In this document: positions 26,041-32,412 of the stretch, one piece after another
Layout: each line of letters begins with the position of its first letter
How positions within the stretch are numbered: the first letter of the stretch is position 1
Assembly: GCA_005843825.1 (NCBI GenBank)
Contig: SZXX01000012.1
Location: forward strand, 1 to 64,000
Source of the DNA: Chlorobium sp.
GTDB lineage: Bacteria > Bacteroidota > Chlorobiia > Chlorobiales > Chlorobiaceae
Reading direction: 5' to 3'
DNA length: 64,000 nt
Translations under genes and position numbers: made by a program
The notes under the pieces: generated by a model
What the model saw: only the letters and a program-made list of their open reading frames with translations
Told to the model about the DNA's origin: nothing
Database searches by the model: none

Positions 26041-26349
26041 CGGGATACGATGGATTCTGAACTTTCGAAAATTGCCCCGTATTTAAAAAAAACTATAATA
26101 ATCGGATATAAAGCGCATAATTGCAACCTTCATTACTGACCTTTTTGCATTAATATACAGTCTGGAAGCCGAAGGAGCAGTGCTCATGTTACAACGTAAC
26201 GCAAGTCGCTCTGTATTTAGCTCTCACACCGGCAGAGTTGGAAGGTAATAACCCGTGGATGTTGCGTAAGAACTAACAAATAGCTTTAATAGTTCTTTTA
26301 GGCGCAGGAGAGAAGAACATGAAATACTATCAAGAGAGGAGAGTTGTTG
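26041..26349. promoter_or_regulatory. divergent promoter region of the M16 gene and uvrB
   Basis: 309 bp. It is AT-rich near 26080-26160, expected for promoters in both directions. A purine-rich ribosome-binding site (GAGAGGAGA) lies just before uvrB. No LexA-like palindrome (CTGT-N8-ACAG) was seen, so SOS control of uvrB is not supported here. Confidence 0.4.
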
Positions 26350-28404
26350 ATGCAGGGGAACGGGAACGGAATATTCAAACTTGTAAGTCCTTACAGTCCG
26401 GCGGGAGACCAGCCGAAAGCCATTGAATCACTCACCGAAGGAGTACTTTCAGGCAATCCATACCAGACACTGCTTGGTGTTACCGGTTCCGGTAAAACAT
26501 TCACCATTTCAAACGTCATTGCCCAGGTCAATAAGCCTGTGCTGGTGATGAGCCATAACAAGACCCTTGCCGCACAGCTCTACGGCGAGCTCAAGCAGTT
26601 TTTTCCCGATAATGCTGTTGAGTATTTTATCAGCTACTACGACTTTTATCAGCCTGAAGCCTACCTTCCAGCGCTTGACAAGTATATAGCCAAAGACCTT
26701 CGCATAAACGACGAGATAGAACGCCTGCGTCTCAAAACCACCAGTGCATTGCTCAGTGGCAGGAAGGATGTTATTGTTGTCAGTTCTGTCAGTTGCATTT
26801 ATGGTCTTGGCTCACCTGAAGACTGGAAAGCCCAGATTATTGAACTGCGTTCCGGAATGGAAAAAGATCGGGATGCTTTTCTGAAAGAGCTGATAGCCCT
26901 TCACTATATCCGTGACGATGTCCAGCCCACTTCGGGAAAGTTCAGGGTGAGGGGTGATATTATTGATCTTGTTCCTGCTCATGAGGAGCTTGCTCTTCGA
27001 ATCGAGTTTTTCGGAAACACTATAGAGAGTCTTCAGACCTTTGAAATTAACACCGGGGAAGTGCTTGGGGTCGAAGACTATGCGTTTATCTATCCGGCCC
27101 GGCAGTTTGTCGCTGATGAGGAGAAGCTCGGTGACGCCATGCTGGCAATTGAAAACGAGCTCGCAGGCCGGTTGAATTTTTATCGCGATGAAAACCGCTT
27201 TCTTGAGGCCCGCAGGATTGAGGAGCGGACCCGTTATGATCTTGAAATGATCAAGGAGCTCGGCTACTGTTCCGGGATTGAAAATTATTCAAGGCATCTT
27301 TCCGGACGCAAAGAAGGGGAGCGGCCTTACTGCCTCCTTGATTATTTCCCTTCGGATTATCTTGTTGTCATTGATGAATCCCATGTAACGCTGCCTCAGA
27401 TACGCGGCATGTACGGTGGCGACCGCTCCCGGAAAACCATTCTTGTTGAGCACGGGTTCAGGCTTCCTTCAGCGCTCGATAATCGTCCGCTTCGTTTTGA
27501 GGAGTTTGAGGAGATGGTATCGCAGGTTATCTGCGTCAGTGCCACTCCCGCCGAGCATGAACTGATGCGTTCAGGTGGAGTGGTGGTTGAACAGCTTGTC
27601 CGTCCTACAGGTCTGCTTGACCCTCCGGTGGAAGTTCGTCCAGTCGCGGGACAGATTGATAATCTGCTTGCAGAAATCCGTAAACATACAGCCAGAGGCC
27701 ATAAGGCTCTGGTCATGACTTTGACGAAAAGAATGGCTGAGGATCTGCACGACTTTTTCAGGAAGACGGGCATACGCTCGCGCTACCTGCATTCGGAGAT
27801 CAAGAGTCTGGAGCGTATACAGATTCTCAGAGAGCTGAGGGTTGGAGATATCGATGTGCTTGTGGGGGTTAACCTCCTTCGTGAAGGGCTTGATCTTCCT
27901 GAAGTATCGCTAGTGGCTATTCTTGATGCCGATAAGGAGGGCTTTTTGCGCAACACCCGTTCGCTTATGCAGATTGCCGGCAGGGCGGCCCGTAATGTTG
28001 AGGGCTTTGTTGTGCTCTATGCCGATGTTCTGACGCGCTCCATACGTGAAGTGCTTGATGAAACTGCAAGGCGTCGTGCGATTCAGCATCGCTATAACGA
28101 AGACCATGGCATTACTCCGCAGTCAATTATAAAATCGATTGATCAGGTTCTTGATACCACGAGTGTAGCTGATGCCGAGGAGCGCTATCGCAGAAAGCGG
28201 TTTGGGCTTGTGGCAAAGCCTGAAAGGCTGCTGTCGGGTCTCATTGAGACGCTGACGCCTCAGGAAACTTATGCCATGGCGGCCGAACTCCGGATTGAAA
28301 TGCAGGAAGCTGCTGTGCAGATGGAGTACGAAAAAGCTGCTTATCTCCGAGACGAGATTTCAAAGCTTGAACAGGTTATAAAACGCATGCCGACTGAGGG
28401 ATAG
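26350..28404 (+). CDS. uvrB: excinuclease ABC subunit B
   Basis: 684 aa from ATG 26350, preceded by GAGGAG; an upstream TTG is less likely. Walker A GVTGSGKT is at residues 43-50, the beta-hairpin [12 protein letters not shown] inserts into damaged DNA, and the helicase motifs (IDESH, GRAARN) are present. The C-terminal UVR motif ([12 protein letters not shown]) binds UvrC. It verifies damage in nucleotide excision repair with UvrA and UvrC. The length is normal. The restriction-modification pair follows 163 bp downstream. Confidence 0.97.
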
Positions 28405-28567
28405 CCTCCATTAAGGTTTATGCCGGCGAAGAAATAACATAATGGCAATACAGGTAGGGCCGTATTCTGGTTGTGGTTGTATCTAACTTTGGAGAAAGTT
28501 TGTAAATTGACTGACGTATATTATCCTCAGTGTTGCGGAACATCTCTCTGAAATTAATTTTGTTTTC

Positions 28568-29158
28568 ATGGCTATCAGTGCGTTACCTGAGTCCCTTCAG
28601 TCCGGCTATGAAATTCATGAGTGGAGGCATGCTTCTGCCATTCTTGCTCTTGATTTTCCTGATGAATTAGCAGACATCTGTGATGTGTTGGGTCACTTTC
28701 GTCTTTGTAAGACTTTTTTAACAAGTCCAGGTGGGCGTAAATCTCAGGTTTCTCAGGGGATTGACTCTGCATTTTATACCAAAGGATGGGTGGAGAAAAA
28801 GTTTGACACAGCTTTTGTCGTTGATAATACCTCTATCGCAAGCCCTACTCATGCGGTTGACTGTTATAAGAACAAAGTGGCGTTGGAAATTGAATGGAAT
28901 AATAAAGACCCGTTTTTTGATCGGGATTTAAACAACTTCAGATTACTGTTTGAACTTCGAGTAATTTCTGTTGGAGTTATTGTGACGAGGTGTGATTCAT
29001 TGCAAGATATTTTTGATCGACTGGACAGGGGAAGCTCTTTTGGTGCATCAACTACGCACATGAGCAAGCTTCTGCCAAAGGTCGAGGGAGGCGGTGGTGG
29101 CGGATGCCCTGTACTTGTTTTTGGAATTAAAGATACCCTTTATGACGAGAATTGTTAA
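28568..29158 (+). CDS. BglII-like type II restriction endonuclease
   Basis: 196 aa. It matches the Endonuc-BglII family, with a PD-(D/E)XK-type core at Asp98 and Glu107-Ile-Glu109 in VALEIEWNNKD, followed by FDRDLNNFRLLFE. In BglII itself the third catalytic residue is Gln, in an E-x-Q arrangement; here it is Glu, and Lys113 lies nearby. By inference it cuts a GATC-centred palindrome such as AGATCT or RGATCY; specificity is not proven. The glycine-rich C-terminal stretch (VEGGGGGGCP) is unusual. The 3' end overlaps the methyltransferase start by 17 bp. Parts of the gene are AT-richer than uvrB (one 60-base line near 28861 has 20 G/C), consistent with transfer. Confidence 0.8.
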   Translation: MAISALPESLQSGYEIHEWRHASAILALDFPDELADICDVLGHFRLCKTFLTSPGGRKSQVSQGIDSAFYTKGWVEKKFDTAFVVDNTSIASPTHAVDCYKNKVALEIEWNNKDPFFDRDLNNFRLLFELRVISVGVIVTRCDSLQDIFDRLDRGSSFGASTTHMSKLLPKVEGGGGGGCPVLVFGIKDTLYDENC

Positions 29159-29819
29159 TGTAACTGAGCCTACTCCCGCAGAGGACTTGCTGTTAAAGAC
29201 GAGAGATCGGTACTCTACTATTCTTGCTGATCCTCCCTGGCAGTTCCAAAACCGTACGGGGAAGATGGCACCAGAGCATAAGAGGCTGTTGCGTTATCCA
29301 ACTATGGAGATCAAAGAGATTATGGAGATGCCTGTTCCAAAGCTTGCGGCAGCTAAATCTCACTTGTATCTGTGGGTTCCTAATGCACTTTTAAAGGAAG
29401 GTTTGCAGGTCATGGAGGCATGGGGTTTCACATATAAGACTAACTTGGTTTGGCATAAAATCCGTAAGGATGGTGGTTCTGATGGTCGGGGAGTTGGGTT
29501 CTATTTCAGAAATGTCACTGAACTGATTTTATTCGGCGTCCGCGGTAGTATGAGGACGTTACAGCCAGGCAGAACAAAAGTTAATCTGTTCGGGACAAGG
29601 AAAAGAGAGCATTCCCGTAAACCAGACGAGGTCTATGATTTGATCGAGGAATGTTCACCTGGGCCTTACATTGAGCTTTTCGCAAGATTTAAACGGCAAG
29701 GTTGGGACCAGTGGGGTAATGAGGATGTAGAAACAAACTCATTTAATGATGTTGCATTCAGAAACGGTCATGCTGATGTTAGTGAAAACCAGCTGAGCTT
29801 TATGGAAACAGCAGGATAG
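29142..29819 (+). CDS. MT-A70-family DNA adenine N6-methyltransferase
   Basis: 225 aa from ATG 29142; an in-frame GTG at 29094 would lengthen the overlap without a better signal. The catalytic DPPW motif is at residues 30-33. It is followed by SHLYLWVPNALL, the AWGFTYKTNLVWHKI strand and a C-terminal FARFKRQGWDQWGNE segment that closes the SAM pocket, as in MT-A70/M.MunI relatives. It transfers a methyl group to adenine. Its overlap with the endonuclease gene says it is the protective partner. The known BglII methylase modifies cytosine, so this pairing is of a different type. It could also protect a site other than the BglII one. Confidence 0.85.
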   Translation: MTRIVNVTEPTPAEDLLLKTRDRYSTILADPPWQFQNRTGKMAPEHKRLLRYPTMEIKEIMEMPVPKLAAAKSHLYLWVPNALLKEGLQVMEAWGFTYKTNLVWHKIRKDGGSDGRGVGFYFRNVTELILFGVRGSMRTLQPGRTKVNLFGTRKREHSRKPDEVYDLIEECSPGPYIELFARFKRQGWDQWGNEDVETNSFNDVAFRNGHADVSENQLSFMETAG

Positions 29820-29997
29820 AAAGGCCTGCCCGTATTCGAGGAAAACGCTCTGTGCTCTGTTTGAATTCAATTAGTTATAAGGCAAGTCGAGAGCGTCGGA
29901 AGGAATGTACTGTCTTTGCATCTATAGCCGACTTTGTCATAAAAGCGCAATTTCGTGTACTGATTTGAACACATGGTCAGACTGATCAAGCCCTAAC

Positions 29998-30023
29998 AGC
30001 CGGAGTAATTTCCGGCTTTTTTA
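29998..30023 (+). terminator. intrinsic terminator closing the R-M operon
   Basis: AGCCGGA / TCCGGCT 7-bp stem with a GTAATT loop, followed by TTTTTTATT. It lies 179 bp after the methyltransferase stop and upstream of the rel promoter region. Confidence 0.85.
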
Positions 30024-30131
30024 TTGCCTGAAGCGGTCTGTTTTGTATGTTACTTAATGGTGCTTTTTTGTTGATTTGAGACTTTTTTGTAATGAAAAGT
30101 CCATAAGCTGTGTTTATATATAAAGGACTGA

Positions 30132-30163
30132 TACTGTGTACATTATAGAATAAGTACACAGTA
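30132..30163. promoter_or_regulatory. 10-bp inverted repeat, likely rel operator
   Basis: TACTGTGTAC, a 12-base spacer (ATTATAGAATAA), then GTACACAGTA: a perfect 10-bp inverted repeat. The spacer contains a -10-like TATAGAAT, so a dimeric regulator bound here would cover the rel promoter, 47 bp upstream of the ATG. The bound factor is unknown. As RNA it could also form a 10-bp hairpin, but it has no U-tract and AT-rich DNA surrounds it. Confidence 0.6.
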
Positions 30164-30210
30164 CTGCCCCCCTTATCTTTTAACTGGTTTTTTTCGGGAG
30201 TTTGTTTGCG

Positions 30211-32412
30211 ATGTTAGCCCAGATTGAGAAGGATCATTACGATAAACTCCACGAGATACTTGCGCTTTCCCGCCGGAATCTTAAAAACTTTGATGAATCA
30301 CTGATTCAGCGGGCGTTTTTTATGTGCTATCGGGCACATGAGGGAGAAAAAAGGGCTTCTGGAGAGCCGTTTTTTTATCATCCTGTCGAAGTGGCCACCA
30401 TTCTTCTCAATGAACTTCCTCTTGACGGCGTATCCGTTGCGGCTGCACTCTTGCATGATGTTATTGAGGATAGCGGCTATACCTTTGAAGATATTGTAGC
30501 TGAACTTGGTGTTGAAGTCGCTGAAATTGTTGAAGGGCTTACCAAGATTTCCGGCATCATGATCAACCGGGAGACGACCCAGGCTGAAGGCTTTCGCAAG
30601 ATGCTGCTTTCTATGGTGAAGGATATTCGGGTTATTCTCATAAAATTCTGCGATCGGCTGCATAACATGAGAACGCTTGAATCTCTTCCGGAGCACCGTC
30701 GTCTGAAGATCGCTCTTGAAACAAGGGATATCTATGCTCCTCTGGCGCACCGGTTCGGTCTTGGAAAGATGAAGGTTGAGTTTGAAAACCTTGCTCTCAA
30801 ATTTATTGATCCTGAGATGTATGACTTTCTGATGAAGAAGGTCCGCACGAGCAGGGGAGAGCGGGTTAACTATCTTAGTAAAATGATAACTCCGATCAAG
30901 GCTGATCTTGAAAAACAGGGCTTCAAGGTGGCTGTGGATGGTCGGGCCAAGCATCTTTTTTCGATATACAACAAGATGCGCAGCAAGAACAAGACCTTTG
31001 AGGATATCCACGATCTTTATGGTATCCGGGTTATTGTCGATACGGAGCGTATTGCCGACTGCTTTGCGGTCTATGGCTTTATTACACAGAAATATCCGCC
31101 TATTCCGCAGCATTTCAAGGACTATATCTCCATACCGAAACATAATGGATACCAGTCTCTCCATTCAGCTATCATAGGCCCTAGGGGTCACATGGTTGAG
31201 CTGCAGATCCGTACAAAGCGTATGCATGAATTTGCTGAGCTTGGAGTTGCAGCCCATTGGCGATATAAGGAAAAAATTTCTCGGGATGATGCCAACGTTG
31301 ATTCTTTCCTGCGCTGGGCCAGAGAGCTGATCAAGGATGCTGATTCGGCGGCTGAATTTATGGAGGGATTCAAGCTCAATCTCTACCATGATGAGATCTA
31401 CGTGTTTACTCCGAAAGGGGATATGAAAACCATGCCTGCCGGCGCGACCCCGATTGATTTTGCCTATGCGATTCATACCGAGGTTGGAAACGGCTGTATC
31501 GGCTCCAAGGTTAACGGCAAGATTGTTCGTCTGAATGCGGTGCTGAAATCCGGTGACAGGGTGGAGATCATCACTTCAAAAAACCAGAAGCCGAAATCCG
31601 ACTGGCTGAAAATAGTTGTCACCCAGCGCGCAAAGCTTAAAATTCGATCTGCCATCAATGAGGAACGGCGGATTCAGATTGAAAAGGGCCGGGGCATGTG
31701 GGAAAAAATGCTTACCGGCACCAAAAAGCTTCTTACTGATAATGATATCATCCGGCAGGTTAAGCGATACGGCATTAAGACCCCTGCAGATTTTTTCAGT
31801 GCTCTTGCCAGTCAGCAGATCAACGGTGAAGAGGTCATAGAGCGTGTAACAAGCGCCCGAAAGGAAGAGCCTGCTGCAAAATCTGCCACTGACGAAGCCC
31901 GTGAAGTTGAGGATTATCTCCAGAAAGCCCGGCAGGAGCAGGAACAGGAAGGTGTGGCCTCCAAAAAGGATGAGGTTGTTATTGCCGGCATGAGCAATAT
32001 TGCCTATTCCTATGCTAAATGCTGTCAGCCGGTTCCGGGTGATGATGTGATTGGATTTGTGACAACAGAGGGTGTTGTTAAAATTCACCGCAAAAACTGT
32101 GTCAATGTCAGCAATGAAAATCTTCAGAAAAGTGAGAGGGTTGTCTCTGTTTCATGGAACAGGAAGGTTGAGACCGATTTCCTTGCCGGTATAAAGATTG
32201 TCGGTGAAGATCGTATTGGCATTATCAACCAGATTACAACGGTCATCTCTAAATTTGATACCAATATCCGCAGTATTTCGCTTCACGCCCGCGATGGTAT
32301 GTTTGTCGGTACGCTCATGATCTATGTCCGTAATGCCGACAAGCTGAGTTCTCTTATGGACAAGGTGAAAAAAGTTCAGGGAGTCTTTACCGTTGAGCGT
32401 CTTATAAGCTGA
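30211..32412 (+). CDS. bifunctional (p)ppGpp synthetase/hydrolase (Rel/SpoT)
   Basis: 733 aa from ATG 30211 with GGGAG about 10 nt upstream; a TTG three codons earlier is less likely. The HD hydrolase domain is intact (His57, His82-Asp83, Glu86-Asp87 in LLHDVIED). The synthetase domain follows with HNGYQSLH and VELQIRT. Then come TGS (EIYVFTPKGDMKTMPAGATPIDFAY), a zinc-finger-like CCQPVPGD and a C-terminal ACT domain. An intact HD site implies both synthesis and degradation of the alarmone. It is the only Rel-type gene seen here, and Chlorobi usually carry one long RSH. It stands behind the palindrome at 30132-30163. Confidence 0.95.
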   Translation: MLAQIEKDHYDKLHEILALSRRNLKNFDESLIQRAFFMCYRAHEGEKRASGEPFFYHPVEVATILLNELPLDGVSVAAALLHDVIEDSGYTFEDIVAELGVEVAEIVEGLTKISGIMINRETTQAEGFRKMLLSMVKDIRVILIKFCDRLHNMRTLESLPEHRRLKIALETRDIYAPLAHRFGLGKMKVEFENLALKFIDPEMYDFLMKKVRTSRGERVNYLSKMITPIKADLEKQGFKVAVDGRAKHLFSIYNKMRSKNKTFEDIHDLYGIRVIVDTERIADCFAVYGFITQKYPPIPQHFKDYISIPKHNGYQSLHSAIIGPRGHMVELQIRTKRMHEFAELGVAAHWRYKEKISRDDANVDSFLRWARELIKDADSAAEFMEGFKLNLYHDEIYVFTPKGDMKTMPAGATPIDFAYAIHTEVGNGCIGSKVNGKIVRLNAVLKSGDRVEIITSKNQKPKSDWLKIVVTQRAKLKIRSAINEERRIQIEKGRGMWEKMLTGTKKLLTDNDIIRQVKRYGIKTPADFFSALASQQINGEEVIERVTSARKEEPAAKSATDEAREVEDYLQKARQEQEQEGVASKKDEVVIAGMSNIAYSYAKCCQPVPGDDVIGFVTTEGVVKIHRKNCVNVSNENLQKSERVVSVSWNRKVETDFLAGIKIVGEDRIGIINQITTVISKFDTNIRSISLHARDGMFVGTLMIYVRNADKLSSLMDKVKKVQGVFTVERLIS

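What the first reader, a model, noticed from the sequence alone, without database searches (positions are those of the whole stretch)
28568..29819. Unusual restriction-modification pair: BglII-like nuclease with an MT-A70 adenine methylase, between uvrB and rel
Known BglII uses a cytosine methylase, whereas here an m6A enzyme of the MT-A70 type overlaps the nuclease gene by 17 bp and a terminator closes the unit. The nuclease has E-I-E at the catalytic site where BglII has E-x-Q. AGATCT occurs repeatedly in this window (for example in rpsB at about 40152), so if that is the target it must be methylated.
Basis: partly seen in the sequence, partly recalled or inferred. Interest (0 to 1): 0.6.

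Follow-up and report, generated by a model that had tools for sequence, protein, structure and literature searches.

The report
Ordinary RGATCY-type restriction-modification gene pair
The two genes are a common DNA-cutting and DNA-protecting pair (a type II restriction-modification system) of a sort already shown in the laboratory to cut RGATCY and to protect it by adenine methylation; it was inserted between two housekeeping genes in this green sulfur bacterium and is not unusual.

Summary
A 196-aa BglII-family nuclease gene (28568-29158) overlaps by 17 bp a 225-aa MT-A70 methyltransferase gene (29142-29819), between uvrB and rel, with E-I-E at the catalytic site. The claim that this is unusual is not. 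Both proteins are orthologues (65% and 70% identical) of R.Nph3I and M.Nph3I from Nitratiruptor phage NrS-3, which were shown in vitro to cut RGATCY and to make RG(m6A)TCY; m6A blocks that nuclease. Of the 80 best, 79 have the MT-A70 gene directly downstream (one frameshifted), the last contig ends too early to tell, and all 80 have E-I-E. A predicted structure matches BstYI (RGATCY) best, then BamHI. The likely target is therefore RGATCY, of which AGATCT is one form. The pair is accessory: 2 of 65 genus genomes carry it in the uvrB-rel gap, 21 sampled relatives have about 100-235 bp there, and G060 has a type I R-M region instead. AGATCT is not specially avoided in this genome. Verdict: a new member of a known, characterised kind; low interest.

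The parts
28568..29158 (+). BglII/BstYI-family type II restriction endonuclease, 196 aa, orthologue of R.Nph3I; catalytic D98...E107-I-E109
   Evidence: Pfam PF09195 147.5 bits; 64.6% identity over 195 aa to R.Nph3I; AlphaFold model (pLDDT 84.7) matches BstYI best in the PDB
29142..29819 (+). MT-A70 family DNA adenine-N6 methyltransferase, 225 aa, DPPW motif, orthologue of M.Nph3I
   Evidence: Pfam PF05063 99.9 bits; PADLOC type II MTase 302 bits; 69.6% identity over 184 aa to M.Nph3I
29142..29158 (+). 17-bp overlap of the two genes
29998..30017 (+). terminator-like hairpin followed by T run, downstream of the pair
   Evidence: pattern scan only
28405..30142 (.). approximate inserted segment: 1738 bp here against 41 bp in the sister genome G036
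   Evidence: blastn of the uvrB and rel flanks

Best explanation
This is a horizontally acquired type IIP restriction-modification system of the Nph3I/BstYI kind. The nuclease is inferred to act as a homodimer, like BstYI, and to cut unmethylated RGATCY in incoming DNA. The MT-A70 methyltransferase, probably co-translated from the overlapping downstream gene, converts host sites to RG(m6A)TCY, which blocks the nuclease. Shown here: gene content, coupling, orthology to a characterised pair, fold match and accessory distribution. Inferred: the target RGATCY, activity in this organism and a defence role.
For: Orthology to the characterised pair R.Nph3I/M.Nph3I: 64.6% and 69.6% identity, with M.Nph3I itself scoring as MT-A70 at 111.7 bits. 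The published assays show RGATCY cleavage, RG(6mA)TCY methylation and inhibition of R.Nph3I by 6mA (PMC10734518). PacBio data show RGATCY 100% methylated in the host and phage genomes (PMC9723563). The MT-A70 gene follows the nuclease gene in 79 of the 80 best homologues in diverse phyla; the other contig ends 41 bases after the nuclease. E-I-E is present in 80 of 80 and in R.Nph3I. Foldseek best hits are BstYI 1sdo/2p0j/1vrr (E about 4e-8 to 2e-7), then BamHI 1bhm. Patchy occurrence at different loci, and an empty uvrB-rel gap in relatives. Both reading frames are intact.
Against: No methylome or assay exists for this organism. Specificity can drift at 65% identity: AGATCT-only, GGATCC-only or GATC cannot be excluded. 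AGATCT density in this genome (460 per 2.55 Mb, about 180 per Mb) is like that of relatives lacking the pair, so genome composition gives no independent support for the target.
Confidence: 0.9

Rival explanations
1. An R-M pair with narrower or different GATC-centred specificity (AGATCT only, as in BglII, or GGATCC only, as in BamHI).
For: Fold neighbours include BamHI. The BglII family contains enzymes of differing specificity, and the published assay shows BglII cutting AGATCT only.
Against: The closest characterised homologue, at 65% identity, cuts all four RGATCY probes. The best structural match is BstYI (RGATCY), not BamHI.
Confidence: 0.06
2. A decayed or non-defensive remnant: the pair is no longer active as a restriction system and only the methylase matters.
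For: Nuclease fragments without a methylase hit occur in two genus relatives (G084; G082 with a stop).
Against: Both frames here are complete with all clade-invariant residues. In the related species G071 the nuclease is 98% identical at protein level, although the surrounding DNA is 89-91% identical, which suggests purifying selection.
Confidence: 0.04

Closest known systems
R.Nph3I / M.Nph3I (Nitratiruptor phage NrS-3; PMC10734518)
   Same: Same two families, same gene order, 65% and 70% protein identity, same E-I-E and DPPW motifs
   Different: Carried by a temperate phage with a 12-bp gap between the genes; here chromosomal with a 17-bp overlap
A. baumannii A118 R-M cluster H0N27_10820-30 (PMC10287943)
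   Same: BglII/BstYI-superfamily nuclease with m6A at RGATCY; Dam methylation protects against it
   Different: A regulator gene lies between the two genes. In a similarly organised Acinetobacter plasmid cluster (pTR3_1, nuclease 51% identical) the MTase is D12 class, not MT-A70; the A118 MTase itself was not examined here
BstYI (RGATCY)
   Same: Best structural match in the PDB (TM about 0.68)
   Different: About 15% sequence identity; not sensitive to 6mA; third catalytic residue Q rather than E (from memory, not tested)
BglII (AGATCT)
   Same: Same Pfam family PF09195
   Different: Cuts AGATCT only; cytosine methylase partner and E-x-Q site (from memory); not among the PDB matches listed for the model

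Membership tests
Type IIP R-M system, Nph3I-like (BglII/BstYI-family nuclease plus MT-A70 m6A MTase) | Nuclease of PF09195 | tested here: met
   147.5 bits against a cut-off of 26
Type IIP R-M system, Nph3I-like (BglII/BstYI-family nuclease plus MT-A70 m6A MTase) | Adjacent MT-A70 MTase orthologous to M.Nph3I | tested here: met
   99.9 bits; 69.6% identity to M.Nph3I
Type IIP R-M system, Nph3I-like (BglII/BstYI-family nuclease plus MT-A70 m6A MTase) | Nuclease orthologous to R.Nph3I with conserved catalytic residues | tested here: met
   64.6% identity over 195 aa; D98, E107, E109 invariant in 23 aligned homologues; EIE in 80 of 80
Type IIP R-M system, Nph3I-like (BglII/BstYI-family nuclease plus MT-A70 m6A MTase) | Cleaves RGATCY and is blocked by RG(m6A)TCY | not testable with these tools
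   Needs an enzyme assay or a methylome
BglII proper | AGATCT-only specificity | not testable with these tools
   Orthology to R.Nph3I predicts RGATCY instead
BglII proper | Cytosine methyltransferase partner | tested here: not met
   The partner is MT-A70

The most novel reading that the evidence does not exclude
The uvrB-rel gap is a preferred insertion spot for defence cassettes in this genus, and the GATC-centred nuclease clade freely exchanges between unrelated adenine methylase families (MT-A70 and D12), so that nuclease and methylase evolve as separable modules.
Probability: 0.3. Interest if true: 0.25.

Novelty: new member of a known kind. Interest (0 to 1): 0.12.

Why it matters
It matters little beyond annotation. 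It predicts that this strain's DNA carries m6A at RGATCY, and that transforming DNA prepared from a Dam+ E. coli should be protected, as shown for A. baumannii A118 (PMC10287943). It also corrects the idea that a BglII-like nuclease must come with a cytosine methylase.

Tried and rejected
NCBIfam gave no hit for either protein. Single-sequence and profile searches of PDB sequences found no nuclease relative, so the family link to BstYI rests on Pfam and the predicted fold. AGATCT avoidance as evidence of target: the window shows 11 against 22 expected, but the genome density (about 180 per Mb) is in the range of relatives without the pair, so this was rejected as a signal. Absence of RGATCY inside the two genes (0 sites in 1252 bp) was considered, but fewer than one is expected by chance. 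No boundary repeat that would explain the insertion was found within 28300-30300.

Full report
Observation. The nuclease ORF is 28568-29158 (196 aa) and the methylase ORF 29142-29819 (225 aa), overlapping by 17 bp, between uvrB (26344-28404) and rel (30202-32412). The nuclease matches Endonuc-BglII over the whole profile (147.5 bits) and the methylase matches MT-A70 over the whole profile (99.9 bits). PADLOC calls the latter a type II methyltransferase (302 bits). A terminator-like hairpin lies at 29998-30017, about 180 bp past the methylase stop. AGATCT occurs 11 times in the window, half the dinucleotide expectation.

What it is. Searching annotated phages with the nuclease returned Nitratiruptor phages NrS-2 and NrS-3 at 64.6% identity over 99% of the protein. 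In NrS-3 the next gene, NrS3_07, is an MT-A70 methylase (111.7 bits), 69.6% identical to the window's over 184 aa. These are R.Nph3I and M.Nph3I. Cell-free assays showed cleavage of all four RGATCY probes, complete inhibition by 6mA, and methylation to RG(6mA)TCY, whereas BglII cut AGATCT only (PMC10734518). PacBio data found RGATCY 100% methylated in the host and phage (PMC9723563). A BglII/BstYI-superfamily nuclease with m6A at RGATCY was also shown genetically in Acinetobacter baumannii A118 (PMC10287943).

How common it is. Of these 80, 79 have the MT-A70 gene directly downstream on the same strand (one, L061, has both genes frameshifted; a script with a strict distance limit counted 78), and the remaining contig ends 41 bases after the nuclease. 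The distance from the nuclease stop to the DPPW motif is most often 71 nt, exactly the window's value. The E-I-E motif is present in 80 of 80 (this replaces the '79/80' of my notebook entry) and in R.Nph3I, so it is the clade norm. The BglII E-x-Q comparison is from memory.

Structure. An AlphaFold model from 23 homologues (mean pLDDT 84.7, pTM 0.84) matches BstYI (1sdo, 2p0j, 1vrr; TM about 0.68, E about 4e-8 to 2e-7) and then BamHI. No other PDB entry has E below 0.001. BstYI recognises RGATCY, consistent with the orthology argument. The catalytic block D98...E107-I-E109 is invariant in the alignment.

Locus history. Of 65 genomes in the genus, only this one and G071 were found with the pair in the uvrB-rel gap. 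Three further genus genomes with 83-84% identical pairs (G079, G062, G035), and one genome of a second genus in the family (G019, 83%), carry them elsewhere; no uvrB or rel is found in the flanks held (up to 5 kb each side). Twenty-one sampled relatives have about 100-235 bp between uvrB and rel. Relative to G036, 41 bp is replaced by 1738 bp in the window (28405-30142). The uvrB-rel gap of G060 holds a RelE toxin and antitoxin-like pair, an ORF6N gene, a DUF6602 gene and an HsdM/HsdS-like type I protein, with rel recovered further downstream; G075 has the same genes next to uvrB.

Module exchange. Closely related MT-A70 methylases also pair with a longer, divergent PF09195 nuclease: L009 in the same genus, with nuclease 35% and methylase 79% identical, and Xanthomonas plasmid pXfc37, where the two genes converge. 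Conversely, nucleases about 51% identical to the window's pair with a D12-class methylase in Acinetobacter pTR3_1 and a Dyadobacter plasmid.

Target test by genome composition. AGATCT density in the genome (460 in 2.55 Mb) is similar to that of relatives without the pair, for example 476 in about 3.0 Mb and 533 in about 2.8 Mb. There is no carrier-specific avoidance, so the predicted target rests on orthology and fold only.

Verdict. An intact, horizontally acquired type II restriction-modification system of the Nph3I kind, predicted target RGATCY. New locus, known kind, low interest.

Noticed in passing
uvrB-rel gap, window 28405-30142; L125 (G060), L126 (G075): The gap is variable in this genus: about 100-235 bp in sampled relatives, the type II pair here and in G071, and a type I R-M region with a RelE-type toxin and antitoxin-like pair in G060 (same genes next to uvrB in G075).
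   Followed up: partly
L009 (G031), L092 (Xanthomonas pXfc37): The same MT-A70 clade pairs with a longer, divergent BglII-family nuclease (35-40% identical), in pXfc37 with the two genes converging.
   Followed up: partly
L090 (Dyadobacter plasmid), L091 (Acinetobacter pTR3_1): Nucleases about 51% identical to the window's pair with a D12-class adenine methylase and a helix-turn-helix regulator instead of MT-A70.
   Followed up: partly
L008 (G084) and G082:C29:1638-1799: Truncated nuclease remnants with no MT-A70 methylase hit in the same genomes.
   Followed up: no
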